From a virus: DNA of 24,982 nt. The translations under genes and the position numbers were made by a program. The stretch covers positions 1 through 24,982 of the IMG/VR virus record IMGVR_UViG_3300028228_000215; one strand, written 5' to 3'. This document shows, piece after piece, positions 6,301 through 20,737 of this stretch (the first letter of the stretch is position 1; every line of letters begins with the position of its first letter). The notes under the pieces were generated by a model, which saw only the letters and a program-made list of their open reading frames with translations, did not search any database and was not told the origin of the DNA.

Positions 6301-9300
6301 CTATGCAGATATTCCAGAATACAAATCAGATACAACAGGTCAAACTTTTCAATTAAGAGATTGTTTGGACTTTAGACCAAGAGTAGATGACGCAAGTACA
6401 ATTAACTCAGGTGGTCAAGATAGAAGTTTTGATGGCACCGGTGCTTCAACAGTTGATATTGTTAAATTTGGTGATGATGTAACTACAGACTTTGAATTTT
6501 ACTTATCAAGAATTGATAAAATCTTTTTAGATAAAGACGGTGCATTTAAAGTTGTTGAAGGTGCTTCTTCATTAAACCCACAATTACCTAAAGCTTTAGA
6601 CGGTGCAATGCATTTATACACATTGTCACTAGCGCCTTACACTTTATCTACCGAAGAAATAGAAATTGAAACAGTTGATAATCGAAGATATACAATGCGA
6701 GATATTGGTAGATTAGAAAAAAGAATTGAGAATGTTGAGTATTACACACAACTTTCATTATTAGAAACACAAACACAACAATTACAGATACAAGACGCAG
6801 ACGGTTTTGATAGATTTAAAAATGGATTTATCGTAGATAACTTTACAGGTCACGGCGTTGGTGATGTTGGTAATTTAGATTACAAGATTGCAATGGACAT
6901 GGCTTCAGGCGAGGCTAGACCTATATGTAAAACAGATTCAGTACAATTAATCGAAGCTGATGATGACGGTACAGCAATTATAACAACAGATAGAACAGAC
7001 AATAACTATGCAAAAACTGGAGATTTAATTACTCTTCCTTATAGTGAAGAAACTTTAATCGACCAACCTTTTGCAAGTAAATTTTTAAATGTTAATCCTT
7101 TCAATGTATTCACATGGGTTGGTACAATAGAATTAGACCCACCAGGAGATGAATGGAAAGAAACAGAAAGAGTACCAGAATTAGTAGTTAACCAAAATGG
7201 TATGTTCGATACTATGGCAGCTAACTTAGGTAATCCTAACTTAGCAGAAATAGAAATAGGCACAGTTTGGAATGAATGGCAAGATAATTGGGTTGGTAGA
7301 CCAGTAGAAGCTGGAACTAGAAATATTGGTGGTACTAGAAGAGAACAAACATTCGCTAGAGGTGTTCCTAGAAGAGTATTACAAACACAAGAAATTACAA
7401 CTGTTCAGCAAGTTAACCGAACTAGAACAGGTGTTAGAAGTGTATTCGTACCACAGGTTGTAAGACGGTCTTTAGGTGATAGAATTCTTAATGTTGCATT
7501 TATACCTTTCATTAGAAGTAGAACAATAAACTTCACAGGAACAAGATTTAAACCTAACACTAGAGTTTATGCATACTTTGATAACATTGATGTATCTGCC
7601 TATGTTACACCAACTGGAGGCGCTTTAGGTGGTAATGTCGTGTCAGACGCTAATGGTGCATTGTCTGGAACATTCGCTATTCCTAGCCCAACGGTAGACG
7701 CAAATCCAAGATGGAGAACAGGTACAAGAATATTCAGATTGACAAGTTCATCTACAAATGATTTAAACTCAGATGTAGAAACAGCTGGTGAAGGAGATTA
7801 TTCAGCAAGAGGTTCATTAGAAACAGTTAGAGAAACTATTGTTTCAACAAGAGAGCCTAGAATTGTTAGAGAAAATACAACAGAAACTACAACAATTGCA
7901 AGAACATCAACTAGAAGAACAGACAGACAAGTTGGTTGGTGGGATCCACTTGCTCAAACATTCTTAGTAGATGATAAAGGCGGAGTATTTGTTACTTCAC
8001 TTGATGTTTACTTTCAATCTAAACCAGAAACAGGTGATTCACAAGTTCCCGTAACTTTACAAGTTAGAGAAGTTAAGAATGGTTATCCATCTACAAACAT
8101 TTTACCATTCTCAGAGGTGTCAATAAATCCTACTGCTGTGACAACTAGTACAGACGCTACAGTTGCAACAACATTTACATTCCCTAGTCCTGTATTCATA
8201 CAAGAAAATACAGAGTATGCATTTGTATTATTAGCTAACTCACAAGAGTATAATGTTTATGTGTCAAGAGTAGGTCAAACTAATTTAGGTTCTGATAGAA
8301 CAATATCATCACAACCTTATGCTGGTGTATTATTCAAATCTCAAAACGGTTCAACTTGGACTGCTGAACAGAATGAAGACATTAAGTTTAAAATGAAGAG
8401 AGCTGAATTTGAAAATGTAACTGGTAATGTTACTTTCACAAATGATACTTTACCAAGTAGAACATTAAAATCAAATCCAATTAGAACAACAAGTGGCTCA
8501 GATGTGATTAGAGTATTCCATCCAAATCACGGTATGCACGGTGTAACAAACAATGTAACACTTTCAGGATTTGAAGCGAGTACAGATTTTAATGGTATTA
8601 CAGGTTCATCTATTAACGGAACATATACAGCATTAACAAATATCACACTTGATAGTTATGATGTTCAAATTGCAGATAGTTCAACCGCTACATCTTCAGG
8701 TGATACAGGTGGTTCAAATGTAGTTGCAACACAAAATAGATTATATGATGTTTCTATGTTGAACATTCAAACTATGACTGTACCAGATACAAATATTGGT
8801 TATGCGATTAGACCTACTTCAGGTAAATCGGTTCATGGTTCAGAAACAGAATTTGCTTTAACACCTAGTGCAAGTGCTATTAATGTAATTGCAAATGATA
8901 ATATTTACTTCGAAGCTGCTCAAATGGTTGCAAGTGATATTAACCAAACAAACGAAATGTCTGGTAGTAAATCATTATTTGTAACTTGTTCATTAACAAC
9001 AGCAAACACAAAATTATCTCCTGTAATTGATACACAAAGAATTAGTATGATTACAGTTCAAAACAGATTAAATAGTCCTACTTCTATTAATCATCCTAAT
9101 TTTAAAGATGATGAACAATCAAGTGGTTCTTCAACAGCAGCTATTTACTGTACAAGACCTGTAGTATTGGACAATCCATCTACAGCAGTTGAAATAAGAT
9201 TGACTTCAAATGTAAGGTCAGACGCAGAGGTAGAAGTTTATTACAGAGCAACTTCATCCGAAGAAGTTAGAGATGTTAAAGATTTAAATTGGGTGCCATT

Positions 9301-9490
9301 TAACGGTGACGGTAGTGAAGACACTACAGTTGCACCAGCAGAATCAGATGGTGATTTTAAAGAATACAAATATAGTGCAAGTGGTATTTCAGAGTTTACA
9401 GCCTTTCAAATTAAAATTGCAATGAAAGGTACTAACTCAGCACATGCACCTAGAATTAAAGATTTAAGAGGGATAGCTTTAGCTGTATAA
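3353..9490 (+). CDS. Giant DUF4815-type baseplate/tail structural protein (2,045 residues)
   Basis: The N-terminus (residues 2-67: FNLSPYYDDFNESKKFHRIL, FRPSFAVQARELTQSQSILQ, EKGAMVIPGE) is the signature of DUF4815 structural proteins that follow gp8 in marine T4-like phages. Other conserved blocks are NRRYTMRDIGRLEKRIENVE near residue 1110, a charged Arg/Thr-rich segment at about 1310-1370, and VGWWDPLAQTFLVDDKGGVF near 1525. Between them are Thr/Ser/Gly-rich beta-type segments with repeated GETITG motifs (about residues 481 and 600) that look like inserted Ig-like or adhesin modules. The C-terminus (VVLDNPSTAVEIRLTSNVRS, EVYYRA) is also family-like. A good AGGAG precedes ATG 3353 and overlaps the gp8 stop. 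The frame is open for 6.1 kb without a break. Role inferred: a baseplate-linked fibre or wedge protein in the gp10 position. Confidence 0.75.
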   Translation: MPSPTDFNLSPYYDDFNESKKFHRILFRPSFAVQARELTQSQSILQNQVERVSDHLFEKGAMVIPGEIGYNINYYAVKLTSFTDSAAVGVTLTDFAGLQLTGQTSGVVAKVINQVAAVDTDPNTLYVQYETSGTSNTANSFTDGETISVSTTLQSVITTVSAVVDTTATGAAAYVAEGTYYINGFHVNVSEQTLILDKYTNTPSYRVGLLVTESFVTPNDDLSLNDNAQGTSNVNAPGAHRFKIDLTLTKKSLTATDDANFVELLRLKAGILQNQVRTTDYAVLEDTLARRTFDESGDYAVRDFDLDLREHLISGTNRGIYSSGNGGLETKIAAGMGPGKAYVKGYEIETIGTSFVDINKARDFDTQNNFTTKFDVGNFVNVSNIFGSPDIGFVSGATEAFKRINLYDTLTAARGTENTGTGASINSIGRAKSKGFQYVTGAASSLTFASSSLTSAIYRHYMFDINMFTHLNVTSNTAFTTGETITGSTSNATGTVESLTTVTSVSSSAITVASPGVVSATAHNLKEGQQITFSAVSFANNSTAVTTSDIFTVRNPGTNDFELYESDGTTATNITSYSSSGNVLHGVVVLSSTNGTFVAGETITGGTSSNTSIIQTDAVGLSGVTIYDFVQTKQIGMAGTPAYTADVSRSATYGESLQITGNISVANSSASVTGFGTLFNTELKIGDEITISTDAGGTVTKIVEAIVSNTSLTLTAAVGGSDVSSKSVATRNRGKLQDSNKNISVFKLPNEAVKTLKTAANSGITDTNFKVRRQFVQQLSSGSGQISAGTNETFASLAEGDYVISIKVIGAASSGANGDILSLTGNNGNGNPIFTLSGSPTGKTLDLDFGTAYADAELKIVATVNRAVAGSKTKTLNSNSTVAISTQSTIESGVIGLSKADVYQINNIYMAPDFSTVATTSHTDITSRFELDNGQRDNFYDIGRIKLKTGELTPTGRLLVDFDYFSHGSGDYFDVDSYSGVVDYADIPEYKSDTTGQTFQLRDCLDFRPRVDDASTINSGGQDRSFDGTGASTVDIVKFGDDVTTDFEFYLSRIDKIFLDKDGAFKVVEGASSLNPQLPKALDGAMHLYTLSLAPYTLSTEEIEIETVDNRRYTMRDIGRLEKRIENVEYYTQLSLLETQTQQLQIQDADGFDRFKNGFIVDNFTGHGVGDVGNLDYKIAMDMASGEARPICKTDSVQLIEADDDGTAIITTDRTDNNYAKTGDLITLPYSEETLIDQPFASKFLNVNPFNVFTWVGTIELDPPGDEWKETERVPELVVNQNGMFDTMAANLGNPNLAEIEIGTVWNEWQDNWVGRPVEAGTRNIGGTRREQTFARGVPRRVLQTQEITTVQQVNRTRTGVRSVFVPQVVRRSLGDRILNVAFIPFIRSRTINFTGTRFKPNTRVYAYFDNIDVSAYVTPTGGALGGNVVSDANGALSGTFAIPSPTVDANPRWRTGTRIFRLTSSSTNDLNSDVETAGEGDYSARGSLETVRETIVSTREPRIVRENTTETTTIARTSTRRTDRQVGWWDPLAQTFLVDDKGGVFVTSLDVYFQSKPETGDSQVPVTLQVREVKNGYPSTNILPFSEVSINPTAVTTSTDATVATTFTFPSPVFIQENTEYAFVLLANSQEYNVYVSRVGQTNLGSDRTISSQPYAGVLFKSQNGSTWTAEQNEDIKFKMKRAEFENVTGNVTFTNDTLPSRTLKSNPIRTTSGSDVIRVFHPNHGMHGVTNNVTLSGFEASTDFNGITGSSINGTYTALTNITLDSYDVQIADSSTATSSGDTGGSNVVATQNRLYDVSMLNIQTMTVPDTNIGYAIRPTSGKSVHGSETEFALTPSASAINVIANDNIYFEAAQMVASDINQTNEMSGSKSLFVTCSLTTANTKLSPVIDTQRISMITVQNRLNSPTSINHPNFKDDEQSSGSSTAAIYCTRPVVLDNPSTAVEIRLTSNVRSDAEVEVYYRATSSEEVRDVKDLNWVPFNGDGSEDTTVAPAESDGDFKEYKYSASGISEFTAFQIKIAMKGTNSAHAPRIKDLRGIALAV

Positions 9491-9491
9491 C

Positions 9492-9716: not shown

Positions 9717-10666
9717 TGGCAGTACGAAATATAGCAGTAACGGATACACTCGAAACATTTAGAACCGAATTTAATGATTTGGCACTTAATGATTTTGGTG
9801 ATATTGCAAACCTAAGTGGCGCTATTAGCTCAACTAATTTAGTTGACGCTATGAATGAAACCATTAGTATTGCTACATCTACTGCTGGTTGGACAATTGA
9901 AGACAGTACATCAACTCAACAGATTATTGGTGGTGGTGATGTTTTAAAAGTTTTTGGTACTTCAAATGAAATTGAAGCTGTTGTAAGTGCAACAGACTTA
10001 TTAACTATTGGTTTACCAAGTGTAGTTTCTATTACAACCTCAGTTACAGCACCAACTGTATCAACAGGTAATATGTCATTAACAAATGGTTCTATTACAG
10101 ATTCAAGTGGTGATATTTCTTTTGGTAATGAAAATTTAACTACTACAGGAACAATTAATGGTGGTGCAATTACAGGAACAAGTATTACAGGTTCAGGTGC
10201 AACACACACTTTAGGTACAATAGAAATTTCTGGTAACACAATTAGTTCTACTGACTCAAGTAGAATTGTTATTGATGACACTTTCAGAGCAACTGTTTTT
10301 GAATCAGAAACAGGTTTATTTACTGTAGATGAGATAAGTGGTTTTCCTAGAATAAGGTCTACAAGAGGTGATGACTTTTTAATTTTTGACGCAATACCTA
10401 CATTTAGTGGTTCAATTATATTTGAAGGTGCAACTGCTGATGCTTTTGAAACAACAATGTCTGTTTCTGACCCGACAGCAGATAGAACAATTACATTACC
10501 AGATAATTCAGGAACAGTAATTACAACAGGTTCTACAGACGCAGTTGTAGAAGGTATGATGGGACCAGATTCAATTGGTCAGAATGAATTGAAGTCATTA
10601 GTATCTCTACAAATATTAAACTCATCAGGTACAGTATTAAAAACAATTTTTGGTGCTGGCGCTTAA
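9716..10666 (+). CDS. Tail-fibre-like protein
   Basis: This 316-residue protein is rich in Thr, Ser, Gly and Ile, with short beta-type repeats (TGTINGGAITGTSITGSG near residues 145-160) like phage fibre shafts. It contains DPTADRTITLPDNSGTVIT near residue 250, a motif common in marine phage tail fibres and also present in the gene at 22662 (EPTADRTITLPDQSG). The ending SLQILNSSGTVLKTIFGAGA is typical of this fibre class. A TATAAATA inside the upstream coding sequence (9650-9657) could serve as a late promoter. It lies next to the DUF4815 protein, so it is probably a distal tail or baseplate-attached fibre. Confidence 0.7.
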   Translation: MAVRNIAVTDTLETFRTEFNDLALNDFGDIANLSGAISSTNLVDAMNETISIATSTAGWTIEDSTSTQQIIGGGDVLKVFGTSNEIEAVVSATDLLTIGLPSVVSITTSVTAPTVSTGNMSLTNGSITDSSGDISFGNENLTTTGTINGGAITGTSITGSGATHTLGTIEISGNTISSTDSSRIVIDDTFRATVFESETGLFTVDEISGFPRIRSTRGDDFLIFDAIPTFSGSIIFEGATADAFETTMSVSDPTADRTITLPDNSGTVITTGSTDAVVEGMMGPDSIGQNELKSLVSLQILNSSGTVLKTIFGAGA

Positions 10667-10681
10667 GAATGGAATTAGATT

Positions 10682-11617
10682 ATGGCAGTAAGAAGTCCTT
10701 TATACAATAATTCTGGCAATATACAAGAAATGACCACAACAATGGTCAATGAAGTAATTGACCAGATTGTTTACCAATATTCATTAAATCCAAGTGTTGC
10801 ATTGTCCGTAGTCGGTTCAGGCGGAAGTTTATCTGCTATTAGTGATACAAGATTACAGGCAGGCGCTAGTTCAACAAGTGCCACAGCGTTTCCTAGTGAA
10901 GCCACAACAGCTGAACCAAGTACGGTAACAGTATCATATGATAGAGTTAATTTAACAAACGCTTCATTTACACCCACAGCAGACTCAGGAAAAACATGGC
11001 CAGTTTATTATACATCTGGTGGAAATATTCAGTCAATGAACTTGCAAGATGTCAAAGATACATTTTTGCATCCTGCCATAGATTTATTATCATCTGCTTC
11101 AACTACAACACAACAAGCAGGAACTTATACAATTTCAACTTCATCTTCATTATCAGGTGCAACTTTAGTGAGTGCAACTCCTATATTTTTAGATACAAGA
11201 GCAGATACATCTTTATATACCGCTGGTGGTATTGGTGAAACATTAGACCAACCTACAACTATTACAAGTTACTATTTACACCAAATTGATGGTTCAGATA
11301 CTTCTTATACAGTTCCATTTCTTGCTAATGCGTCAAATAATCTACAAGAATTTGTAGGTGCAACATTTGAATCTTTATTACAAGAATGGATAAGATACAC
11401 TGCTGCTTCTTCAGCAGACGGCTATAATATCACTTATTCTATTGGAACAAGTGGTTCAGGAAATACAAGAGGAACTGCTATTGCAAATACAATATTAAAT
11501 GGTTCTGGTAATTATCAAACTCGTTTTGTAGGAGCTGATGATTATAGAGCTCAAGAGTTTCCTAATGGAACTCCTACAACTGCAAATACTTATAACTTAT
11601 ATATCAACAAATCTTAA
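10682..11617 (+). CDS. Virion structural protein of the marine T4-like type
   Basis: The 311-residue protein begins MAVRSPLYNNSGNIQEMTTT, then MVNEVIDQIVYQYSLNPSVA. This N-terminus recurs in structural proteins of T4-like cyanophages and pelagiphages. Later segments (DSGKTWPVYYTSGGNIQSMN, DTFLHPAIDLL, and FESLLQEWIRYTA near residue 230) are also recognisable. There is no signal peptide or membrane segment. The start is ATG 10682, 15 bases after the previous stop. The protein is probably part of the tail or baseplate periphery; its exact role is unknown to me. It is the last structural gene before the enzyme island. Confidence 0.65.
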   Translation: MAVRSPLYNNSGNIQEMTTTMVNEVIDQIVYQYSLNPSVALSVVGSGGSLSAISDTRLQAGASSTSATAFPSEATTAEPSTVTVSYDRVNLTNASFTPTADSGKTWPVYYTSGGNIQSMNLQDVKDTFLHPAIDLLSSASTTTQQAGTYTISTSSSLSGATLVSATPIFLDTRADTSLYTAGGIGETLDQPTTITSYYLHQIDGSDTSYTVPFLANASNNLQEFVGATFESLLQEWIRYTAASSADGYNITYSIGTSGSGNTRGTAIANTILNGSGNYQTRFVGADDYRAQEFPNGTPTTANTYNLYINKS

Positions 11618-11629
11618 TTATGAATTACT

Positions 11630-12373
11630 ATGAAAATATTATTAACAGGCAGTGAAGGATTTATAGGTAAAAACCTACAATCATTTCTCAAAGACCAACA
11701 TCAACTTATTTGTTTAGACAAAAAATTAGGCAATGACCTAATCAATTGTGACTTAGATTATGAAGTTGATTTAGTTATTCACTTAGCAGGACTTTCAGGT
11801 GTTAGACAAAGTTTAGATAATCCAGTTGACTATTGGATAAACAATGTCGTAGTAAGTAACAGAATATTCAGTCAATTTAAAAACAAAAAAATACTATATG
11901 CCAGTTCAAGTACAGCAAATGAGCCTTGGCGTAACCCATATGCAATGAGTAAGTTTTATATGGAACAAATTGCACCAACAAATAGTTTAGGTATGAGATT
12001 TACAACAGTTTATGGTCCTGGCGCCAGAGAAGGAATGTTAATACCAAAATTAATTAAAAATGATGTTGACTATATCAATGTAGACCATTATAGAGATTTT
12101 ATACACATAGATGACTTAATGAGTGCTATAAAAATATTAATGACAAATAATGTAAAAGAAAAAGTTTTAGAAATAGGTACAGGTAGTTCAATCAATTTAC
12201 TAGATATTTTAGCTCAACTAAATATAACTATAGAAGATAAAAGAATGGGTACTACTTTTGAAAGAAAAAATAATAAAGCAAGTATTCAAATATTAAAAGA
12301 CTTAGGTTGGTCTGCCAAGACTGACTTGATTGAATATATCAAAAACGAAAGAGGTAATTATGGCAATATTTAG
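11630..12373 (+). CDS. NAD-dependent epimerase/dehydratase (extended SDR), sugar-nucleotide type
   Basis: The N-terminus MKILLTGSEGFIGKNL carries the GxxGxxG Rossmann motif (G7, G10, G13). HLAGLSGVRQS (51-61) is the usual segment after strand 4. ASSST (91-95) supplies the catalytic Ser/Thr, and Y104-x-x-x-K108 (NPYAMSK) is the catalytic pair. GMRFTTVYGPGAREGM and HYRDFIHIDDL are family-typical C-terminal motifs of sugar-nucleotide epimerases. At 247 residues it is shorter than the usual 300-330, with a reduced C-terminal substrate domain. The likely substrate is a nucleotide sugar; which one cannot be told. It opens the enzyme island, and the two nearby glycosyltransferase-like genes fit a glycan pathway. 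The last 14 bases overlap the next gene. Confidence 0.85.
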   Translation: MKILLTGSEGFIGKNLQSFLKDQHQLICLDKKLGNDLINCDLDYEVDLVIHLAGLSGVRQSLDNPVDYWINNVVVSNRIFSQFKNKKILYASSSTANEPWRNPYAMSKFYMEQIAPTNSLGMRFTTVYGPGAREGMLIPKLIKNDVDYINVDHYRDFIHIDDLMSAIKILMTNNVKEKVLEIGTGSSINLLDILAQLNITIEDKRMGTTFERKNNKASIQILKDLGWSAKTDLIEYIKNERGNYGNI

Positions 12374-12836
12374 TGGTAATATTATAGAAGCTTATTATGC
12401 TAATTCAGAAAACGATACAGTAGAAGTTATCTACAAACAAGGTGAAAAAGCAATTAATCACTATCTAAAAGTAGATTTTAATAATCAAGACTTTAAAGAT
12501 TTAATAGAAGAATACGATACTGATAAAATAGCAGGTTCAACAATTGCTAGAAATAGAAACTATGCTAGACAATTAAGTGAAATGGTAGACGCAGGTATTC
12601 GGTCTAAAACTGATAATAAAGTTAAAGTTAAGGTCTCTGTTGATGATTTTATAGATAGTATTATAAACTTTAAAAGTGGAGATAAACAATCTGATGAAAC
12701 TTTATTTGCTTTAAAAGTTAAAATATTTGAAAATGATAAAGTAAAATCTTGTAATGATAAAGCTTTAAAATCTTCATTAAGAGCTGCAAAAACACCTGTT
12801 GATATTATTAGTTTGTTTGATAAAATAAATGGTTAA
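12360..12836 (+). CDS. Phage protein of unknown function (158 residues)
   Basis: The best start is ATG 12360 (MAIFSGNIIEAYYANSENDT), preceded by AGAGG at a good distance. A TTG 30 bases upstream in the same frame has no such support. The start overlaps the end of the epimerase gene. The N-terminal half (EVIYKQGEKAINHYLKVDFN, DLIEEYDTDKIAGSTIARNR) resembles a small hypothetical protein found among T4-like cyanophage structural genes. The C-terminal half is Lys/Asp-rich and probably helical. There are no catalytic motifs, signal peptide or membrane segments. It may be structural and misplaced among enzymes, or a small regulator. The final bases overlap the next start (ATGGTTAA). Confidence 0.65.
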   Translation: MAIFSGNIIEAYYANSENDTVEVIYKQGEKAINHYLKVDFNNQDFKDLIEEYDTDKIAGSTIARNRNYARQLSEMVDAGIRSKTDNKVKVKVSVDDFIDSIINFKSGDKQSDETLFALKVKIFENDKVKSCNDKALKSSLRAAKTPVDIISLFDKING

Positions 12837-13395
12837 TATATATTGTGTTAAGTGGGGTACAAAATATGATAGAAGTTTTGTAGAAAAATTAAAAACTTCT
12901 ATTGAGAAACACATTACAATTGAACATAAATTTAATTGTTTTACAGATAGACCTGAAAAAGATTATGATATACCTATTACTCATCCTGAGTTAAGAGGTG
13001 TATGGCACAAACTAGCTTTATTTCAATTTACAGGAAGAAATTTATTTTTTGATTTAGATATTGAAATAAATGATAATATAGATTTTTTAACAGATGAATG
13101 GAAAACATTTACCTGTGTAGATAGTATGCCTTGGAAAAAAACACAAACTTAAAACATTAGCAATCAATAATGATACATTAATTAATACTTCTATAATGAG
13201 ATGGACTGATAATAAAAAGTATTTGATAGATTTATGGAACATAGAGATTTATATTTAAGACTATATACAGGTATAGATAGATTTATTTGGAATGAGGGTA
13301 TCGGTCATACAACATTTAATGGTAACGCTATATCTAGTTGGCAAGAGGGTATAGAGAATAATACAATTGTTCTTTATAACGGAAGATATGTTTGA
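12829..13395 (+). CDS. Glycosyltransferase-like protein with DxD motif, frame-disrupted
   Basis: The N-terminal part (MVNIYCVKWGTKYDRSFVEK, FNCFTDRPEKDYDIPI, GVWHKLALFQFTGRNLFFDL) resembles small phage glycosyltransferases. D75-L-D77 would bind metal and the nucleotide sugar. The raw frame stops at 13152 after a wrong-length A run at about 13132-13138. The continuation reads KLKTLAINNDTLINTSIMRW in another frame. A second break at about 13237 gives EHRDLYLRLYTGIDRFIWNE, ending at TGA 13393-13395. The reconstructed length is about 188 residues. It would transfer a sugar, probably one linked to the epimerase two genes upstream. The gene overlaps both neighbours. Being real but interrupted by sequence error is more likely than decay, because the downstream segments remain well-formed protein. 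Confidence 0.6.
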
Positions 13396-14053
13396 TTTTA
13401 ATACAATTGAAATAATAAAAAAGATACTAAAAGACTATCCTAATAGACTTGTAGATGTTTTAAATTCATTGGGTGAAAGACAACAATTAAGTAAAGACTG
13501 GCTAGTTGAAAAATTAAATGCATACAAACACCCTTTTCGTAATAAAATGAAAAGTGATAGTTTATCAATTATAATATTGTGTAGTTGGTATGGATTATTG
13601 GCTTACAAATTAATTGAAAAATTTAAATTAAAAAAAATTAATAGAATACATTGTGTTGATTACGACCCTAAAGTAAAAAGAATTGCTAATAGATTATATA
13701 GAAAAATAGACAACGAAAATTTAAAAAATGGTGTATTAACATTAATAAAACATTGGGAGCGTGATATTGCTGATGTGCCTGAAAAAGAATTAAAAAATTC
13801 TGAAATATTAATTAATACCTCTTGTGAACATTTAAATCAACAAACTATATATGACATTATAGACAAAACAGACAGAGGAACATTGATTGTTTTACAAAGT
13901 AATAATTATCACAAAATACAAGAACATATTAATACTGTCAAGGATTTACAAGAGTTTGTATCACAATATCAATCAAGATTAATAAATATTGAAATGCACG
14001 AAAAAGATTTTTTAGAATACAAAAGATTTATGATATTAGGACTAAAAAGATGA
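13388..14053 (+). CDS. SAM-dependent methyltransferase-like protein (221 residues)
   Basis: The likely start is ATG 13388 (MFDFNTIEIIKKILKDYPNR), overlapping the previous stop by 8 bases with GGAAG just upstream. A TTG start 21 bases earlier is less likely. Residues 58-75 (SLSIIILCSWYGLLAYKL) resemble motif I of class I methyltransferases, although the usual acidic-x-G-x-G-x-G is replaced by C-S-W-Y-G. VDYDPKVKRIANRLYR (90-105) fits motif II with its acidic residue. ILINTSCEHLNQQTIYDIID resembles the segment around motif IV. The substrate is unknown. The stop overlaps the next ATG (ATGA). A protein or glycan target is plausible from the neighbouring glycosyltransferases. Confidence 0.6.
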   Translation: MFDFNTIEIIKKILKDYPNRLVDVLNSLGERQQLSKDWLVEKLNAYKHPFRNKMKSDSLSIIILCSWYGLLAYKLIEKFKLKKINRIHCVDYDPKVKRIANRLYRKIDNENLKNGVLTLIKHWERDIADVPEKELKNSEILINTSCEHLNQQTIYDIIDKTDRGTLIVLQSNNYHKIQEHINTVKDLQEFVSQYQSRLINIEMHEKDFLEYKRFMILGLKR

Positions 14054-14809
14054 TAGAAGATATTTTAAAAAAAGAACAAATATATCTTTTTTTAGAGAAG
14101 ATAAGATACCTGATAAAAAAATCATAGAAGATATTTTACAAAAAGCTCATTTATTAACCCCTCATAAAAATAATTTCTTTCAATATGATATTGAAGTTTA
14201 TGGTCCTGAATATGATGAGGATAAAAAATATGCTACACTTGCCACAGTTTTGTTCAGATGTAAAAAATATGTATAGAAAAAGTGAAAATCCTAAAGATTT
14301 TATAGAATTAGAAAAAATATATGAAAAATGGTTGTGGTTTCATAAAAATAAAGTAAAAAGTTATTCAGATAAAGAATTTGAAAAGATGAGAAAATCTATA
14401 AATCAGCATCATTTTAATCAACAAATTAGAGCACCTTACTTATTAGTATATTCTAAAAAACAGACGATATAATAACAAATAGTCAAAAAGAAAGTTCATA
14501 TTTTAAAAGAGGTAGATTGGAAAAAGTATTTGATGTTAAAAGCTTAATAAATAATAATATGTGGTTAGTACAGGCAGGTATGCACGGAATTATTACATCT
14601 ATGTTAGCAGTTGAAAAAGGTTTAGACGCTTCTTTTTGTAAATGTTTTTTTACAATACTCATATTCACTCAAATATTTTGAGAAAAGTAAAAGTTAAAGA
14701 TAATGATATAGCATTCACACTAGGAATAGGTTATGGAGATAAAGAAATGATGAAATATCAATCATATGTAGAAAAACCTTTACTAGAGGAGATAGTAAAA
14801 TGGGTATGA
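14050..14809 (+). CDS. Nitroreductase-like flavoprotein, frame-disrupted
   Basis: The coding pieces read, in order: MIEDILKKEQIYLF, then FREDKIPDKKIIEDILQKAH plus NNFFQYDIEVYGPEYDEDKK, then YRKSENPKDFIELEKIYEKW and QQIRAPYLLVYSKK, then MWLVQAGMHGIITSMLAVEK plus GLDASFCKCFF, then AFTLGIGYGDKEMMKY and on to TGA 14807-14809. The pattern 'FR...IPD..I..IL..A...TP..NN', 'R.PYLL', 'Q.GM....M.A...G' and 'GIGY' is that of the nitroreductase (FMN-dependent) family. Breaks lie at about 14080-14086 (T run), 14243-14252, 14455-14461 (A run) and 14644-14651 (T run), all fitted by one-base losses. Reconstructed length is about 254 residues. The protein would use NAD(P)H and FMN; the substrate is unknown. 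It overlaps both neighbours. Confidence 0.55.
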
Positions 14810-15509
14810 AAATAATAGCAATTAGAATAGGCGATAGATATGGACCTGAATATGAAAAATATTTAGAAGAAAAATTACCAGAATATGAGTTTATATGGAT
14901 TAGAAAACCTATTAGAGATGATGTATTATTACAATGGAATAAAATGTATGCTATGTCTTTAGATATAGATGAGCCTGTTGTTGTTATGGATATTGATGTG
15001 TTATTAACAGGAAACTATAAAGATTTATTTGAATATCCTATAAAAAAAGGTCAATTTGTATCTATACCTGGCTGGTGGCGTGATACAGAAAATAAAAGAT
15101 ATAAGATAAACGGTGGTTTTTTAAATACTACCCTAAAGATTGTAGATATATTTATGATAAATTTATGTCAGATGTTGATTTATGGCAAAACTTTTATATC
15201 AAAAGAGGTATTGCAAAAGGTCCTGTTAATGGAGAACAATATTTTGTTGAAGACAATGTAAATGAAGAATTAGAATTAATCACCGTACCTGAAAGTTGGG
15301 TATGTAGATGGTGTGCTAAAGAAGATATAGGTGTTAAAGACTTTGATTTAACAAAATGGAAAATTAAGACTACTCAATTATATAATCAAGTAACAGGTAA
15401 TGATTATGTTTATCTAGGTGGTGAGTTTCATCCTGATATAAAAATGGTACATTTTACACACTCAACAAATAAGCCACATGATTGGGAAGATATAAATGCC
15501 TTTAGATAA
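14800..15509 (+). CDS. Second glycosyltransferase-like protein with DxD motif, frame-disrupted
   Basis: The start is ATG 14800, with GAGGAG 8 bases upstream. The next in-frame ATG (14806) is less well spaced. Residues 60-70 (VVVMDIDVLLT) carry the DxD motif (D64, D66), and YKINGGFF near residue 104 is a second typical glycosyltransferase segment. The T run at 15115-15120 is one base short. The raw frame ends at 15261; the true frame continues as KYYPKDCRYIYDKFMSDVDL, NGEQYFVEDNVNEELELITV and KMVHFTHSTNKPHDW to TAA 15507-15509. Reconstructed length is about 237 residues. It probably transfers a sugar onto a phage or host glycan. It shares the small DxD layout of the gene at 12829, but the two are not near-copies. 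Confidence 0.6.
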
Positions 15510-16692
15510 ACCTACTACAGAGTCGATTAAACCAAAAAGTAAAACTTATTGTCCTGTATTATTTGATACAATATATTCGAGTAATAAAGATGATAGCTAC
15601 CAGTTATGTTGTTATGCTAAACCTAGTAATGTTTCTCGTAAATACAAACAGTCTACACATACACCTTTTGAGTTTTTTCTATCAGATGAAATGAATGAAG
15701 TTAGAAGAAGAGCATTAGTAGGTGAAAAAAATAGATGGTTGCTTAAGATGTTATGATGAAGAACAAAGAATAGATTACTCTAGTAGAATAAGATATATTG
15801 ACCAATATAAAGATAGAGGTTATTATCCTAAAGAAGTTGGAAGAATAGAATTTAAATTAAGACATTTTGGTAATAATTGTAATTTAAGTTGTGTAATGTG
15901 TAATCCTTGGAACTCTACGAACAAGAAGCTAAAAGAATTAAAAAGAAACAGAATACAGAAAATATATTACTGAAGGATATGGCAATTTCTATTATGAAAA
16001 TTAGACTATAAAACATATACAAAATTTTAAAAATACTATATTAGATAATATTGAATTTATTGATAGATTTCTAATAACAGGTGGCGAACCTTTACAAATG
16101 CCTAAACTATGGCAGTTTTTAGTTGAAGATATACCAGATGAACACGCAAAAAATATAGTTTTGATATTTGATACTAATTTAACTAAATTGACTTTTAAAA
16201 ATAAGTATACTTTTGAGGACATTGCTAAGAAGTATAAATCTGTTTCTTTAAATGTATCGTGTGATAATGTAGGTAATAAATTAGGATTTATGAGATATCC
16301 TATTGATGTAGATGAATTTGAGAATAACTTATTTACATATCATAGATACATACATAATATACAAATTTCAGTATCAACTATGAATGTATTAGATTTAGAT
16401 GAAATCTATGATTATTATACAAAGAATTTTAATTTAAAGGTTGTTTCTTTATCATATGTACAAGGTCCTATGATATTATCTGTTAGAAACTTTAAAGACG
16501 AGGTCAAGAGAGAGTTAGAAAAAAATATAGTCATTTTGATAACAAGAACAAAATGTTTATGAGTGAATTTAGCAAATCACCTTGGCCAAATGCAAAAGAA
16601 AAACAATAAATTATTTAAATAGTCTAGGTAAAAGTAGAAATATTGACTGGACTAAAATGTGGGGTAAAGAATGGCTAGATAAACTAGCATAA
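15496..16692 (+). CDS. Radical SAM protein (twitch-type, as in marine myoviruses), frame-disrupted
   Basis: The coding pieces in order are: SKTYCPVLFDTIYSSNKDDS with QLCCYA; GCLRCYDEEQRIDYSSRIRY; LRHFGNNCNLSCVMCNPWNS; FLITGGEPLQMPKLWQFLVE; VSLNVSCDNVGNKLGFMRYP; and the end NIDWTKMWGKEWLDKLA with TAA 16690-16692. CNLSCVMC is the CxxxCxxC motif that holds the 4Fe-4S cluster (codons at 15878, 15890, 15899), and TGGEP (from 16077) is the SAM-binding GGE motif. Early and late Cys residues fit a twitch-type auxiliary region. Breaks lie at about 15725-15733 (A run), 15940-16004 (more than one), 16519-16527 (A run) and 16602 (A run). Reconstructed length is about 400 residues. The substrate is unknown; homologues are common in T4-like cyanophages. 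Confidence 0.75.
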
Positions 16693-16713
16693 GATTGAGA
16701 TAATTCGAAGACT

Positions 16714-17151
16714 ATGAATAAATTTTACATTACTGGCACTCGTAGAGGCCTAGGAGAATCATTAAGTAAAAAATACAATACGGTTGATAATTTACAAGAC
16801 TGTGATGTTTTCATTAACTGTAAACACGATGGTTTTCAACAAGTAGAATTGCTTTATGAGGCTGCAAAACTTCATAAAAAAATAATCAATATAGGTTCTG
16901 CAGGAAGTGATTGGATAAAAGGTCACAAAAAAATGTATAGATACGGTATTGAAAAGAAAACACTAAGAGATGTAAATGAACAACTTTATTATGAAGGTAT
17001 TGATACTTGTATAATTAATTTTGGTTATTTTGACTCACCTAGAGTATTCCATATAGACAAAAAGAAAATGTCAATTGAGTATTGCGTTTCAATTATAGAA
17101 TGGATATTAAATCAACCTCATAGAATAAAAGATATTACAGTATGTCCATAG
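16714..17151 (+). CDS. Short SDR-like oxidoreductase (145 residues)
   Basis: MNKFYITGTRRGLGESLSKK carries the classical SDR nucleotide motif TGxxxGxG (T7, G8, G12, G14). IINIGSAGSDW (57-67) supplies the catalytic-type Ser, and Y77-G-I-E-K81 is a YxxxK catalytic pair. CIINFGYFDSPRV fits the strand after the active site. Classical SDRs have about 250 residues. Here the part between the nucleotide motif and the Ser is compressed (about 45 residues), which removes strands usually present, but the frame is intact. It may be a reduced phage version. Substrate unknown. The final 10 bases overlap the next start. Confidence 0.7.
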   Translation: MNKFYITGTRRGLGESLSKKYNTVDNLQDCDVFINCKHDGFQQVELLYEAAKLHKKIINIGSAGSDWIKGHKKMYRYGIEKKTLRDVNEQLYYEGIDTCIINFGYFDSPRVFHIDKKKMSIEYCVSIIEWILNQPHRIKDITVCP

Positions 17152-17591
17152 ATTTAAAAAAGATTATAGAAGAATTAAAAATATTACCTAAATTTGAAGA
17201 CCAAATCAGTCTTCAAGGCACAAAAGATAACTTAGACCCTTTCTGGGGTGTAGGTAAGTGGATTGAAAAACATAAAATGGGTATGAAAGAAACAGATTTT
17301 AATGTACCAATATTTGATATTCCGTATACAAATTCTATTCTAAAAGAATTAAAAATGTATAGAACAAGAGTAATGAATTTAAAATCAAAAACTTGTTATT
17401 CTTATCATAAAGATTTATCAAAAAGAATACATATACCCATACAAACAAATAAAGACTGTTTTTTAATTATAGATAAAAAAGTAGAACATTTACCAGCAGA
17501 TGGCAACTATTATGTTATTGATACAACACAATATCATACAGCTCTAAATGCGTCTAGGGAAAATAGAATACATCTAGTAGGAGTTATATAA
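17142..17591 (+). CDS. Aspartyl/asparaginyl beta-hydroxylase-like oxygenase
   Basis: The C-terminal half matches the Fe(II)/2-oxoglutarate Asp/Asn hydroxylase family: SYHKDLSKRIHIPIQTNKDC with H89-x-D91, R95 and H97; EHLPADGNYYVIDTTQYHTA with the distal H132; and NRIHLVGVI with R142 as the likely 2-oxoglutarate-binding Arg. The family pattern 'H.D..KR.HIPI.TN..C' and 'MPADG..Y.IN....H...N.S...RIHL' is followed almost completely. The protein has 149 residues, so it is essentially the catalytic domain with a short N-terminal extension. The likely reaction is hydroxylation of a protein side chain or small molecule; the target is unknown. The start overlaps the SDR gene by 10 bases, which suggests coupled translation. 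Confidence 0.75.
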   Translation: MSIDLKKIIEELKILPKFEDQISLQGTKDNLDPFWGVGKWIEKHKMGMKETDFNVPIFDIPYTNSILKELKMYRTRVMNLKSKTCYSYHKDLSKRIHIPIQTNKDCFLIIDKKVEHLPADGNYYVIDTTQYHTALNASRENRIHLVGVI

Positions 17592-17594
17592 ATA
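17587..17594 (+). promoter_or_regulatory. T4-type late promoter box TATAAATA inside the enzyme island
   Basis: An exact octamer overlaps the stop of the hydroxylase-like gene and ends 5 bases before ATG 17600. Transcription would begin almost at that ATG, so the box would suit the desaturase group downstream (from 17889) better than the 90-residue gene itself. It lies in one of the very few gaps in the island. Confidence 0.5.
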
Positions 17595-17599
17595 GTAGT

Positions 17600-17872
17600 A
17601 TGATTACAAGAAAACTAATACAACAAAGACCAAATACAAGTGTTGATTTTTATACACCTAGTGATGAGGTTATAAATTTGATAAATGAATATGCAGAAAG
17701 TGACTTACAATCAACGGTAAGTGACGATAATCTGGTCAAAACTATTTCATATACTTTATCAGATGAGAATTATACATCTTTGGGTAGTATAAGTACGATT
17801 ATAAATGCACAACAAGATAGATTAGATTATTGTAATACTAATTTAATTTCATTTAATATAGTAGAATCATAA
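17600..17872 (+). CDS. Small phage protein of unknown function (90 residues)
   Basis: MITRKLIQQRPNTSVDFYTP and SDEVINLINEYAESDLQSTV resemble a small hypothetical protein that recurs in T4-like cyanophage genomes, usually near structural genes. The second half (VKTISYTLSDENYTSLGSIS) looks like beta strands. No catalytic motifs, signal peptide or membrane segments are visible. It is flanked by a TATAAATA box upstream and a 16-base gap before the desaturase. Function unknown. It stands out among enzymes and may be a displaced virion protein. Confidence 0.6.
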   Translation: MITRKLIQQRPNTSVDFYTPSDEVINLINEYAESDLQSTVSDDNLVKTISYTLSDENYTSLGSISTIINAQQDRLDYCNTNLISFNIVES

Positions 17873-17888
17873 AAGTTAGGTTTACATT

Positions 17889-18593
17889 ATGAAAACAACG
17901 CACAAACTTTTACTCAATCATTTACTGTGTCACATTGCATTGGTACCAGGATTTATCTATGGTGATTTATGGATGTTTGTTGCAGGTTTTATTTGGTATT
18001 ATATCATTACAATCTGTTCATCAAGTGCAGGTTATCATAGATACTATTCTCACCAATCATTTAAAACAGGTAAATGGTTTGAGTGGTACACAAACTTTTT
18101 AAGTTTATTTGTAGGCTCAGGTCCGTATCTAACGAGAGCTGCAATTCATAGACAACATCACGCATATGCAGATACACCAAAAGACCCTAGTTGTCCTGTT
18201 CATCACGGTTTTTGGAAAATCTATTTTAATTTATGGGGATTAGATGGTAAGATAGAACGAAGATTTTTTAAAGGACTAATTGACAATAAAATACTAAAGT
18301 TCTTTCACAACCATTATTGGAAATTAGTATTCATTACAATAACAGTTTTATTTTTAATTAATCCGTTACTATTGATATTCACTTATTGTGTACCTTGTGT
18401 GTTAAGTTCACATTTATTTGGATTGTTTAATGCATATCTACATAAAGATGGTAAGGCGGCCAATAGTCATTGGTTAAATTTATTTACAGCAGGAGAAGGT
18501 TACCACAAGACACACCATGACAATTCTAAAAAATTGAGATTAGGATTAATTGACCCTACTTACTTTTTTATTCGTTTTATAAAATATGATTAA
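17889..18593 (+). CDS. Fatty acid desaturase (acyl-CoA delta-9 type), auxiliary metabolic gene
   Basis: This membrane diiron enzyme introduces a double bond into fatty acyl chains. All three histidine boxes are present: H50-RYYS-H55, H87-RQ-H90-H91 (in IHRQHHAYADTPKDP) and H206-KT-H209-H210 (in GEGYHKTHH). These match the stearoyl-CoA/delta-9 desaturase family. Hydrophobic stretches at about residues 8-45, 65-80, 145-167 and 165-180 fit paired membrane helices. At 234 residues it is short compared with 300 or more for many bacterial members, but the catalytic core is complete and the frame intact. Desaturases are known in some marine cyanophages. It could change host membrane fluidity during infection or modify a lipid substrate. 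The stop overlaps the next ATG by 8 bases. Confidence 0.9.
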   Translation: MKTTHKLLLNHLLCHIALVPGFIYGDLWMFVAGFIWYYIITICSSSAGYHRYYSHQSFKTGKWFEWYTNFLSLFVGSGPYLTRAAIHRQHHAYADTPKDPSCPVHHGFWKIYFNLWGLDGKIERRFFKGLIDNKILKFFHNHYWKLVFITITVLFLINPLLLIFTYCVPCVLSSHLFGLFNAYLHKDGKAANSHWLNLFTAGEGYHKTHHDNSKKLRLGLIDPTYFFIRFIKYD

Positions 18594-19146
18594 GACATTT
18601 GAGGTGGCACCACTTGATGTCCAAAAGGACATTGATTACATTTATGACATTGTAATTAAAAAAGATGGTAAGAGAGCCAAAAATTATTTAAAAGAAAATT
18701 TAACAGAGCCTGTAATCGGTGTTTCTATACGATATGATGAACAAGGTAATCCTGTTTCAACAGCAAGAATGTTAAGTCGTTCTTGTTATAAAAATGCAGT
18801 TAGAGTATTTGATAGATATGCTTTAATAGAGGGTAACACAGGATTATTACCATCGGACTATGATGGCCTTTTTAAAAAAACATCATCTGATTTACTAGAA
18901 CAACAAACAGATTTTTGTAAAGAAAAGGGGTTTGATTGTATCTTTATATCAATAGAACTAAATGGTAAAAGAACCTTACAAAGAGTTACCAAAGGACATA
19001 ATAAATACTCTAAACATATTTGGACATTTACTGGTCCTGAATATGTAACTTATAAAAAATCTGAAGGTGGGTTGCAATACTTAGCTTATACAGGAAGTGA
19101 ATTCAGGAGGAATGATGGACTATCTTACACAAGAATGGAACAATAG
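18586..19146 (+). CDS. Uncharacterised protein, possibly GNAT-like acyltransferase
   Basis: The 186-residue protein starts at ATG 18586 inside the end of the desaturase gene. PVIGVSIRYDEQGNPVSTAR followed by NAVRVFDRYALIEG looks like the beta-strand pair of a GNAT fold. QQTDFCKEKGFDCIFISIEL and NGKRTLQRVTKGHNKYSKHI resemble the later helix and strand of that fold. The acetyl-CoA-binding R/Q-x-x-G-x-G/A loop is not clearly visible, so the assignment is weak. The pairing with a desaturase would fit an acyl-transfer role, but this is inference. The last 35 bases overlap the next gene. Confidence 0.5.
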   Translation: MIKTFEVAPLDVQKDIDYIYDIVIKKDGKRAKNYLKENLTEPVIGVSIRYDEQGNPVSTARMLSRSCYKNAVRVFDRYALIEGNTGLLPSDYDGLFKKTSSDLLEQQTDFCKEKGFDCIFISIELNGKRTLQRVTKGHNKYSKHIWTFTGPEYVTYKKSEGGLQYLAYTGSEFRRNDGLSYTRMEQ

Positions 19147-19825
19147 AGATTTAACACCTTTATTAAATAACGATATAGATTTAATTGTTATTAAAAATGC
19201 ACCTGCTTCACAAATAAAATTATTTAATTTTATAACTTCATCTTACGAAATTGCACCACAAGACCCTATGGATAAAATCTTTATGGATGTAACACTAACA
19301 GGTGTACACCACGAATTGTATGGTAACACAAATTTAGAATGGCACATAGATAAAGGTTACACACAGCGACCAGTCAATGTAACTGGATTATATGCTTTAG
19401 AAATAGAGGGTGATGTTGGTCGCACATTGTATGTTGATAATCGTATTGACTGTCCTATAGAAAATAAAAAGATTACAGTTGATATGGAAAGATTTACAAG
19501 TAACGAAAGATATGGTTATAAATTTAGAAGTGAAGTTGAACGAAGATGGTTTAGACGAAAACATAGAAATGTATGGCACGACTTAATACAAGAAGATAAA
19601 AAAGGTAAGTATGTTTATTATTGTGAGGCATATACTGAATTACCTAAAGAAGAAAAACAATCAATAGAAAAACTACTTTATGACCCTAGTAGAATCTATT
19701 ATCATCAATGGGAAAAAGGTGACTTTGTTGTAACTAATAATAAAGCAACGAATCACAAGAGAGAATCAACCTCATCTGGTAAAAGACACTTATGGAAAAT
19801 AGAAGGTTTTAACAAAATTACATAA
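19112..19825 (+). CDS. TauD-like Fe(II)/2-oxoglutarate dioxygenase
   Basis: The start is probably ATG 19115 (MDYLTQEWNNRDLTPLL), with AGGAGG at 19105-19110; the ATG at 19112 is too close to it, and a GTG at 19097 has no support. The core reads LEWHIDKGYTQRPVNVTGLY, with the H-x-D iron ligand pair (H77, D79 counted from 19115). Near the C-terminus, YYHQWEKGDFVVTNNKATNH gives the distal His, followed by KRESTSSGKRHLWKIEG with Arg for 2-oxoglutarate. The order W.H.D ... W..GD.V..NN....H.R ... R.L.R is that of the TauD/TfdA family. About 237 residues is slightly short but complete. The substrate is unknown. It ends the enzyme island and is followed by a late promoter box. Confidence 0.7.
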   Translation: MMDYLTQEWNNRDLTPLLNNDIDLIVIKNAPASQIKLFNFITSSYEIAPQDPMDKIFMDVTLTGVHHELYGNTNLEWHIDKGYTQRPVNVTGLYALEIEGDVGRTLYVDNRIDCPIENKKITVDMERFTSNERYGYKFRSEVERRWFRRKHRNVWHDLIQEDKKGKYVYYCEAYTELPKEEKQSIEKLLYDPSRIYYHQWEKGDFVVTNNKATNHKRESTSSGKRHLWKIEGFNKIT

Positions 19826-19834
19826 CAAAAACAT

Positions 19835-19842
19835 TATAAATA
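19835..19842 (+). promoter_or_regulatory. T4-type late promoter box TATAAATA
   Basis: An exact octamer lies in the 33-base gap between the dioxygenase stop and ATG 19859. The strong AAGGAG (19846-19851) follows it. It marks the start of the second structural block. Confidence 0.7.
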
Positions 19843-19858
19843 GTATAAGGAGATAATT

Positions 19859-20062
19859 ATGAATACAGTAATGATTGATGGCAAAGAGTTTGATGTCGCA
19901 AAATTGAGTCCTGAATTGCAGAATTACTTAACGGTAAGACAAGAAATTCAGTTATCAAAGATTAGACACACCTTAGAGCTTGAAAAGATTGATGTTTTAA
20001 CAGCACATTATAATCAAAAAATTGCAGAATTAGTAAAAAAAGAAATACCAGAAGAGAAATAA
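19859..20062 (+). CDS. Small DUF6447-like phage protein (67 residues)
   Basis: MNTVMIDGKEFDVAKLSPEL and the following helical, Gln/Glu/Lys-rich segment (LTVRQEIQLSKIRHTLELEK) match small proteins of marine T4-like phages annotated as DUF6447: a short '.V.IDGKEY...LS.E' beta hairpin plus a helix. AAGGAG lies 7 bases before the ATG, and a late promoter box lies 16 bases before it. The next gene follows after 3 bases. Function unknown; its co-transcription with virion genes suggests a minor structural or assembly protein. Confidence 0.65.
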   Translation: MNTVMIDGKEFDVAKLSPELQNYLTVRQEIQLSKIRHTLELEKIDVLTAHYNQKIAELVKKEIPEEK

Positions 20063-20065
20063 TAG

Positions 20066-20407
20066 ATGGCCGCAATAGCAAACTTAACATTAGACCAAGG
20101 CGCAACATTTAATTCAGATGTTACAGTCAAAGACGCAAATGGAAATGCTTTCGATTTGACAGGATATACAGCTGCCGCTAAGATGGCTAAGGGTTATTCG
20201 TCAACTAGAACAAGAACAGTTATTACAGCAACTATTAATGGTGACCCTACAACAGGTATTGTCACACTCTCACTAACAGCTGATGAAACAGCAGCTCTTG
20301 ATGGCGAAAGATATCTTTACGATTTAGAGATTTTACAGACTTCTACTAGTACCGTTACTAGAGTTATTGAAGGTATTATTACAGTTCGACCACAAGTATC
20401 CATTTAA
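20066..20407 (+). CDS. Small virion structural protein, Ig/beta-sandwich-like (113 residues)
   Basis: IANLTLDQGATFNSDVTVKD, then FDLTGYTAAAKMAKGYSS and TGIVTLSLTADETAALDGER with YLYDLEI, form the recurring pattern of small phage proteins annotated as tail or virion structural. A similar fold pattern ('QG.TF...V...D..G...DLTGYT....') occurs in BppU-like N-terminal domains of receptor-binding baseplate proteins. That parallel is inference. ATG 20066 is 3 bases after the previous stop. No catalytic motifs. Confidence 0.65.
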   Translation: MAAIANLTLDQGATFNSDVTVKDANGNAFDLTGYTAAAKMAKGYSSTRTRTVITATINGDPTTGIVTLSLTADETAALDGERYLYDLEILQTSTSTVTRVIEGIITVRPQVSI

Positions 20408-20423
20408 TTCGCAGTTTTATTAT

Positions 20424-20431
20424 TATAAATA
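20424..20431 (+). promoter_or_regulatory. T4-type late promoter box TATAAATA
   Basis: An exact octamer in the 42-base gap between genes at 20407 and 20450, followed by AGGAGAG before the next ATG. Confidence 0.7.
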
Positions 20432-20449
20432 TAGATAGGAGAGAATTAT

Positions 20450-20728
20450 ATGGCAGATATTACAGCTACTGTAGGACAAAATAATAGTACAACAGCTAAT
20501 ATTGGTGTTAATACGGCCTCTGGTCCTCAAACGGTATCAGTTTCCCTACCCTCAGCTCAGGCTGCTCAAAATTCTTCTCTTCAATTAAAACTGCTCGGTG
20601 ATGTTGATACAACTACATTAGATGATGGAGCGTTATTACAATATAGGTCAAGTGATGGAAAGTTTGTAGCTAGAACAGAAATATCTACTACAACAGGTAC
20701 ATTGACCTTAAACGCAGGAGCATTTTAG
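20450..20728 (+). CDS. Small phage structural protein (92 residues)
   Basis: The start ATG is preceded by AGGAGAG and by a late promoter box. The sequence is Ser/Thr/Gln/Ala-rich (MADITATVGQNNSTTANIGV). Its second half, LLGDVDTTTLDDGALLQYRS followed by SSDGKFVARTEI, contains the 'L.DGA.L.Y....GKFV' pattern common in tail-fibre-associated proteins of marine phages. It directly precedes the large tail fibre with a 9-base gap and was probably co-transcribed with it. Likely a fibre-associated or short fibre protein; role not certain. Confidence 0.65.
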   Translation: MADITATVGQNNSTTANIGVNTASGPQTVSVSLPSAQAAQNSSLQLKLLGDVDTTTLDDGALLQYRSSDGKFVARTEISTTTGTLTLNAGAF

Positions 20729-20737
20729 GAGTTTTAG

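What the first reader, a model, noticed from the sequence alone, without database searches (positions are those of the whole stretch)
11630..19825. Overlapping-gene enzyme island inserted between two tail-gene blocks
Thirteen genes lie between fibre/virion blocks, and most overlap the next by 4-35 bases (12360/12373, 12829/12836, 13388/13395, 14050/14053, 14800/14809, 15496/15509, 17142/17151, 18586/18593, 19112/19146). Such coupling suggests a coordinately made pathway: epimerase, two DxD glycosyltransferases, methyltransferase, nitroreductase-like, radical SAM, SDR, hydroxylase, desaturase, possible acyltransferase and TauD-like enzyme. A combined lipid/glycan or tail-protein modification system is a reasonable but unproven idea, and I know of no described system with this full set.
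Basis: partly seen in the sequence, partly recalled or inferred. Interest (0 to 1): 0.7.

Follow-up and report, generated by a model that had tools for sequence, protein, structure and literature searches.

The report
Phage fibre-linked sugar-decorating gene cassette
A marine virus of the SAR11 type carries, next to a tail-fibre gene, a fixed set of sugar-attaching genes with swappable chemical-tailoring enzymes, plus a separate fatty-acid-type module; the set recurs in dozens of uncultured marine viruses, so it is a real working unit whose target is still unknown.

Summary
The window is a pelagimyophage fragment (closest isolate Mosig EXVC030M). The island is real and lies in the published, hypervariable 'host recognition cluster' downstream of VrlC. 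As given, 4 of its 13 genes (both glycosyltransferases, nitroreductase-like, radical SAM) are broken by 18 one-base indels between 13135 and 16599. A near-identical contig, L003, has all 13 intact, so these look like sequence errors. The overlaps are confirmed in L003 (9 of 12 junctions). The single-pathway idea splits in two. Module A (fibre 311 aa, epimerase, 158-aa protein, GTa, methyltransferase, nitroreductase-like, GTb, radical SAM) is a genuine conserved unit: 30 of 32 GTb-selected viral loci keep fibre, 158-aa, GTa, MT ... GTb in order, while the genes between MT and GTb vary. The 158-aa protein co-diverges with both glycosyltransferases (rho 0.84-0.86) but only weakly with the adjacent fibre or epimerase (0.26-0.27). 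Module C (90-aa gene, desaturase, GNAT, TauD) has its own T4-type late promoter (8 of 8 loci), occurs without A, and is absent from many A loci. Best reading: a late, phage-dedicated glycan-decoration cassette acting on the adjacent fibre complex (or, as published, the host surface), plus an independent acyl/oxygenase module. Acceptor unproven.

The parts
3353..9490 (+). VrlC-like baseplate protein (2045 aa), left anchor of the host recognition cluster
   Evidence: 84% to Mosig VrlC; phrog_358
10682..11617 (+). fibre-like structural protein, 311 aa (fib311), directly upstream of the cassette
   Evidence: 73% to Mosig_00097; upstream of hyp158 on the same strand in 28/28 hyp158-selected loci in which it was detected
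11630..12373 (+). NAD-dependent nucleotide-sugar epimerase/dehydratase family
   Evidence: Pfam PF01370 1.3e-22; phrog_540; present only in part of the loci
12360..12836 (+). hyp158, conserved protein of unknown fold; co-diverges with GTa/GTb; candidate acceptor or partner
12829..13395 (+). GTa, DxD glycosyltransferase-like (FFDLDI); broken in window by indels at 13135 and 13214, intact in L003 3293-3859
13388..14053 (+). MT, class-I SAM methyltransferase/spermidine-synthase-type fold
   Evidence: profile hit 1.6e-5 to spermidine synthase structures; alignment A2
14050..14809 (+). nitroreductase-like flavoenzyme; broken in window by 4 indels, intact in L003 4514-5275
   Evidence: 4 of 11 family members match PF00881, best 3.9e-5
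14800..15509 (+). GTb, GT-A glycosyltransferase (GT8/LgtC/glycogenin-like fold); broken at 15117, intact in L003 5266-5976
   Evidence: model pLDDT 79, Foldseek E 1e-6
15496..16692 (+). twitch-domain radical SAM enzyme (CxxxCxxC); broken by 11 indels, intact in L003 5963-7156
   Evidence: NF033640 229.8 bits vs cut-off 170
16714..17151 (+). short SDR-like protein (TGTRRGLG, YxxxK motifs by eye)
   Evidence: no Pfam/NCBIfam family; conserved next to AspH in L009, L011, L012
17142..17591 (+). Asp/Asn beta-hydroxylase family 2OG oxygenase
   Evidence: PF05118 3.9e-9; best solved relative Cpz10 7V4F 1.7e-17
17587..17594 (+). T4-type late promoter-like TATAAATA (core 17588-17594) just before the 90-aa gene
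   Evidence: present upstream of the 90-aa gene in 8/8 loci
17600..17872 (+). 90-aa protein of unknown function, first gene of module C
17889..18593 (+). acyl-CoA/acyl-lipid desaturase (three His boxes)
   Evidence: PF00487 8.5e-14; alignment A9
18586..19146 (+). GNAT-fold acyltransferase, 186 aa
   Evidence: model pLDDT 78, Foldseek E 2e-6 to GNAT structures
19112..19825 (+). TauD/TfdA family 2OG dioxygenase
   Evidence: PF02668 4.2e-15
19836..19842 (+). late promoter-like ATAAATA ahead of the next fibre block
   Evidence: 12/13 loci
19859..20407 (+). 67-aa protein and 113-aa L-shaped tail-fibre-assembly-like protein, right anchor of the island
   Evidence: phrog_3304; same right boundary in Mosig

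Best explanation
The island is two late modules in the phage's host recognition cluster. Module A is a phage-dedicated glycan-decoration cassette, read through from the fibre gene. The epimerase tailors a nucleotide sugar, GTa and GTb attach sugars, and the methyltransferase plus interchangeable redox enzymes (nitroreductase-like, radical SAM, Asp/Asn-type hydroxylase) decorate the sugar or its attachment residue. The most likely acceptor is the adjacent virion fibre complex (fib311 and/or hyp158), which would change the adhesin surface and hence host range or recognition. Module C (90-aa protein, desaturase, GNAT acyltransferase, TauD oxygenase) is a separate acyl/oxygenase unit with its own late promoter. 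Shown: gene identities, fixed gene set and order, swapping of the middle genes, co-divergence of hyp158 with the GTs, late-promoter placement. Inferred: glycosylation chemistry, acceptor, biological effect.
For: 30 of 32 GTb-selected loci with at least 8.4 kb upstream keep fib-hyp158-GTa-MT...GTb on one strand; NR, AspH or rSAM vary between MT and GTb. 32 of 34 hyp158-selected loci carry core GT/MT genes. hyp158-GTa rho 0.86 and hyp158-GTb 0.84, against 0.27 with the adjacent epimerase and 0.26 with the adjacent fibre, jackknife-stable. GTb has a GT-A fold, rSAM is a twitch rSAM, MT a class-I fold. A T4-type late promoter stands before the 90-aa gene in 8/8 loci and before GTb in 0/8. The GTb scan of 84,980 genomes gave six loci; the two read in full carry T4-like virion genes and three others carry hyp158. 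In some loci the cassette ends against neck proteins or the fibre-assembly gene.
Against: No acceptor is identified: hyp158 is not Ser/Thr-rich (12%), and fib311 is no richer in Ser/Thr than other fibres here. fib311 does not co-diverge strongly with the GTs. Some cassettes contain LPS-type enzymes (GT25 in L169), and Mosig's island carries a sugar aminotransferase and carbamoyltransferase, which fits surface glycans equally well. GTa and GTb lack Pfam matches. Co-divergence could partly reflect two deep lineages (co-linear versus convergent layouts).
Confidence: 0.5

Rival explanations
1. Host-surface modification: the GTs and tailoring enzymes alter SAR11 lipopolysaccharide O-chain during infection so that competing phages cannot adsorb (the published idea for this cluster).
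For: Proposed in PMC7029224; GT8-like fold of GTb also matches LgtC; GT25 LPS-type gene in a related cassette; sugar aminotransferase in Mosig.
Against: No flippase, polymerase or ligase family matched among the 13 genes; no clearly cellular relative of GTb found by the genome scan; adjacency to a fibre gene and co-divergence of hyp158 with the GTs; late rather than early promoter signals.
Confidence: 0.33
2. The whole 13-gene island is one lipid/glycan pathway.
For: All genes co-oriented and mostly overlapping; the Mosig island also contains desaturase, TauD and GNAT genes.
Against: Separate late promoter for module C; modules occur without each other; the GNAT-TauD pair is inverted relative to the desaturase in L014-L016.
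Confidence: 0.08
3. Unrelated auxiliary genes accumulating in a recombination hotspot, with no joint function.
For: Hypervariable region by published description; modular shuffling.
Against: Fixed set and order across loci with GTb identity down to about 61%, and the same set recovered at 25-58% GTb identity; co-divergence.
Confidence: 0.07

Closest known systems
Pelagimyophage host recognition cluster (HRC), PMC7029224
   Same: Same place (downstream of VrlC among tail fibres), hypervariable, GTs and radical SAM cassettes.
   Different: The published description treats it as a nonsyntenic island with O-chain genes; here a fixed fibre-linked gene set with a variable middle and a separate desaturase module are resolved.
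Pelagibacter phage Mosig EXVC030M island (Mosig_00072-00096)
   Same: Same insertion site; epimerase, hyp158, GTa, GTb, MT and NR relatives and the same functional classes.
   Different: Island larger and enzyme block inverted; only 23-28% identity for hyp158, the GTs and MT; different radical SAMs, plus aminotransferase and carbamoyltransferase.
Cyanomyovirus hyperplastic regions and P-SSM2 LPS gene clusters (PMC2984593)
   Same: Enzyme-rich hypervariable insertions near structural genes; superinfection-exclusion idea.
   Different: No GTb, MT, hyp158 or fib311 relative was found in any isolated cyanophage in the phage collection.
Cpz10 caprazamycin beta-hydroxylase (7V4F, PMC9814697)
   Same: Best solved relative of the window's Asp/Asn-hydroxylase family enzyme (1.7e-17).
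   Different: Acts on a small nucleoside-antibiotic intermediate; substrate here unknown.

Membership tests
Pelagimyophage host recognition cluster | Lies downstream of VrlC with tail fibre genes | tested here: met
   VrlC at 3353-9490 and fibre genes on both sides
Pelagimyophage host recognition cluster | Other end at neck gene gp14 | tested here: inconclusive
   Beyond the window; in Mosig the neck genes follow the same fibre block
LPS O-antigen biosynthesis cluster | Flippase, polymerase or ligase with GTs | tested here: not met
   No such family matched among the 13 genes
GT-A glycosyltransferase | GT-A fold with DxD motif (GTb) | tested here: met
   Foldseek to UGGT, LgtC, glycogenin; invariant DID
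GT-A glycosyltransferase | Same for GTa | tested here: inconclusive
   Invariant FDLD motif but no family or structure match
Nitroreductase (PF00881) | Match to the Pfam family | tested here: inconclusive
   L003 member no match; 4 of 11 relatives match, best 3.9e-5
Twitch-domain radical SAM (NF033640) | Score above curated cut-off | tested here: met
   229.8 vs 170 bits on the intact L003 copy
Lipid A hydroxylase LpxO (NF033391) | Equivalog cut-off | tested here: not met
   20.6 vs 500 bits; closer to Cpz10
FA_desaturase (PF00487) | Above gathering score with His boxes | tested here: met
   52.4 vs 29.7 bits; HRYYSH, HRQHH, HKTHH in the window protein, key His invariant in A9
TauD (PF02668) | Above gathering score | tested here: met
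   56.8 vs 27 bits
GNAT acyltransferase | GNAT fold | tested here: met
   Foldseek best E 2e-6, 144 hits at or below 0.001, most listed ones GNAT acetyltransferases; no sequence family match
Virion protein glycosylation system | Glycan present on a virion protein | not testable with these tools
   Needs mass spectrometry of virions

The most novel reading that the evidence does not exclude
Uncultured marine T4-like phages carry a dedicated fibre-glycosylation operon with constant transferases (GTa, GTb), a co-evolving partner or acceptor (hyp158) and interchangeable hydroxylase, radical-SAM or flavin chemistry, so that the adhesin's sugar decoration diversifies by swapping enzymes rather than by mutating the fibre.
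Probability: 0.35. Interest if true: 0.75.

Novelty: new variant of a known kind. Interest (0 to 1): 0.52.

Why it matters
Marine T4-like phages of SAR11 are widespread, and their host recognition region has been described mainly as a hypervariable island. A fixed fibre-linked glycosyl cassette with a swappable middle gives a concrete, testable rule for what varies and what does not, names hyp158 as the protein to examine, and can be tested in Mosig, a cultured relative.

Tried and rejected
Real pseudogenisation of the island was rejected: L003 has no substitutions over 12500-16000 and keeps every frame open, and the indels sit mostly in homopolymers. A recently captured host O-antigen cluster is not supported: the genome scan with the GTb profile gave no clearly cellular homologue, although the scan uses short peptide patterns and could miss distant ones. 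An LpxO-type lipid A hydroxylase role for AspH was considered and not supported at family level. PDB profile searches for GTa and fib311 gave nothing, and PHROG matches for hyp158 were all marginal (best 0.0037). Literature searches for phage-encoded fibre glycosylation returned nothing specific to this cassette.

Full report
What the window is. The 24,982-base record is a virus fragment. Its 1826-10267 stretch is 83% identical to Pelagibacter phage Mosig EXVC030M, a T4-like myovirus of SAR11. Gp8-like and VrlC-like baseplate genes, then fibre genes, precede the island; a fibre-assembly protein and more fibres follow it. This is the region that Zaragoza-Solas et al. named the host recognition cluster of pelagimyophages, a nonsyntenic island downstream of VrlC with glycosyltransferases and radical SAM cassettes (PMC7029224).

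The observation. Thirteen co-oriented genes are present, but in the window four of them are split into short ORFs. Contig L003 matches 9536-24725 and has every gene open. From 13135 to 16599 the two differ by 18 one-base indels, mostly homopolymer length changes, with no substitution between 12500 and 16000 and two in the 16000-16500 bin. The simplest reading is sequence error in the window record. In the intact copy 9 of 12 junctions overlap (4-35 nt), three have gaps of 8-21 nt, and flanking structural genes show gaps or 1-nt overlaps. Mosig's own, larger island at the same site overlaps at 22 of 24 junctions (from the tables), so overlap is the style of the region and does not by itself show a pathway.

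Gene identities. Epimerase PF01370, Asp/Asn hydroxylase family PF05118, desaturase PF00487 and TauD PF02668 pass curated cut-offs. The radical SAM enzyme is a twitch-domain member (NF033640). GTb is predicted to have a GT-A fold of GT8/glycogenin/LgtC type. The 186-aa protein has a GNAT fold. MT has a class-I methyltransferase/spermidine-synthase-like profile. Nitroreductase is supported through relatives only. GTa carries an invariant FDLD motif but no family match. The SDR call rests on motifs. The hydroxylase's best solved relative is Cpz10 of caprazamycin biosynthesis (PMC9814697), not LpxO.

Is it one unit? Loci were collected by independent seeds: desaturase, hyp158, radical SAM, nitroreductase, GNAT, and profiles of hyp158 and GTb. 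Among GTb-selected viral loci with at least 8.4 kb upstream, 32/32 have fib311, hyp158 and GTa, 30/32 have MT, and 30/32 keep the order fib311-hyp158-GTa-MT...GTb on one strand; between MT and GTb the genes differ (NR in 13, AspH in 15, rSAM in 9). These are the best-scoring 80 of at least 484 matches, so they over-represent the nearer clade, and some are near-duplicates. More distant loci keep the set but not the layout: among hyp158-selected loci with 6 kb on both sides, 32/34 carry core genes, with the GTs on the opposite strand in 23 and the same strand in 8, and Mosig is inverted as well. All six loci recovered from bacterial genome contigs by GTb alone also carry GTa and MT. The two I read in full hold T4-like virion genes and so are phage contigs binned into MAGs; three others carry hyp158; the sixth I did not examine further. 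Other middle or neighbouring genes include further radical SAM enzymes, a PP-loop protein, a GATase-like protein, GNATs and a GT25.

Module C is separate. Desaturase-GNAT-TauD recur together, sometimes with the last two inverted, and occur on contigs without the core; many core loci lack the GNAT. A TATAAATA-like late-promoter match sits 12-24 nt before the 90-aa gene in 8/8 loci and before the 67-aa gene in 12/13, but before GTb in 0/8 and hyp158 in 1/11 (the scan also accepted ATAAATG). NATAAATA/TATAAATA is the late promoter of T4-like cyanophages (PMC2984593). Over the whole window the motif is not enriched above chance; it is the placement that is informative. In GTb-selected loci the motif is rarely found just upstream of the fibre (2 of 33), so read-through from further upstream is inferred.

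hyp158. In 19 dereplicated loci having all six genes, hyp158 distances track GTa (rho 0.86) and GTb (0.84) but only weakly the directly adjacent epimerase (0.27) and fibre (0.26); fibre and epimerase are uncorrelated (-0.05; a larger n=56 set gives 0.59-0.61 for hyp158 with the GTs and 0.38 with the fibre). GTb lies kilobases away across a variable middle, so linkage alone does not readily explain this, although two deep layout lineages could contribute. hyp158 is therefore a candidate acceptor, carrier or chaperone of the glycosyltransferases.

Mechanism. I favour a late, phage-dedicated glycan decoration of the adjacent fibre complex: the transferases and hyp158 form the constant part, and the redox and methyl enzymes are the exchangeable chemistry. 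Against it, no acceptor residue is known, and LPS-type enzymes appear in related islands, so host-surface modification for superinfection exclusion remains the main rival. The function of module C is open: desaturase plus GNAT plus oxygenase suggests acyl chemistry, but no lipid target is shown.

Novelty. Location, hypervariability and gene classes are published. The fixed order with swappable middle, the hyp158-GT co-divergence and the two-module split were not found in the papers read. Among 50,697 phage records GTb, MT, hyp158 and fib311 match only Mosig; the search notes that records of or very near the window's own genome may be left out.

Noticed in passing
1-1830: The first 1.8 kb is a frame-broken patchwork: tape-measure-like C-terminus, T4-like portal fragment in two frames, glycine-rich stretch, then a piece matching podovirus HTVC025P gp43/gp44. 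It does not match Mosig upstream of gp8 and looks like an error-rich or chimeric contig end.
   Followed up: partly
13135-16599: Eighteen one-base indels clustered in the variable island with no substitutions between 12500 and 16000 relative to L003, while the 6.1-kb VrlC ORF is intact; suggests that the island was less well polished than the structural genes.
   Followed up: yes
L175 6785-8974, L196 6711-8475: Related cassettes carry another radical SAM enzyme next to a PP-loop/QueC-like protein and a kinase-like protein between MT and GTb.
   Followed up: partly
L043 9651-14736 (Mosig 39650-44735): Mosig carries a phycocyanobilin:ferredoxin oxidoreductase, heme oxygenase, ferrochelatase and four 2OG oxygenases next to the neck genes.
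   Followed up: no
L045 8629-9423: A hyp158-family protein with the C-terminal motif duplicated, on the strand opposite to the GTs.
   Followed up: no
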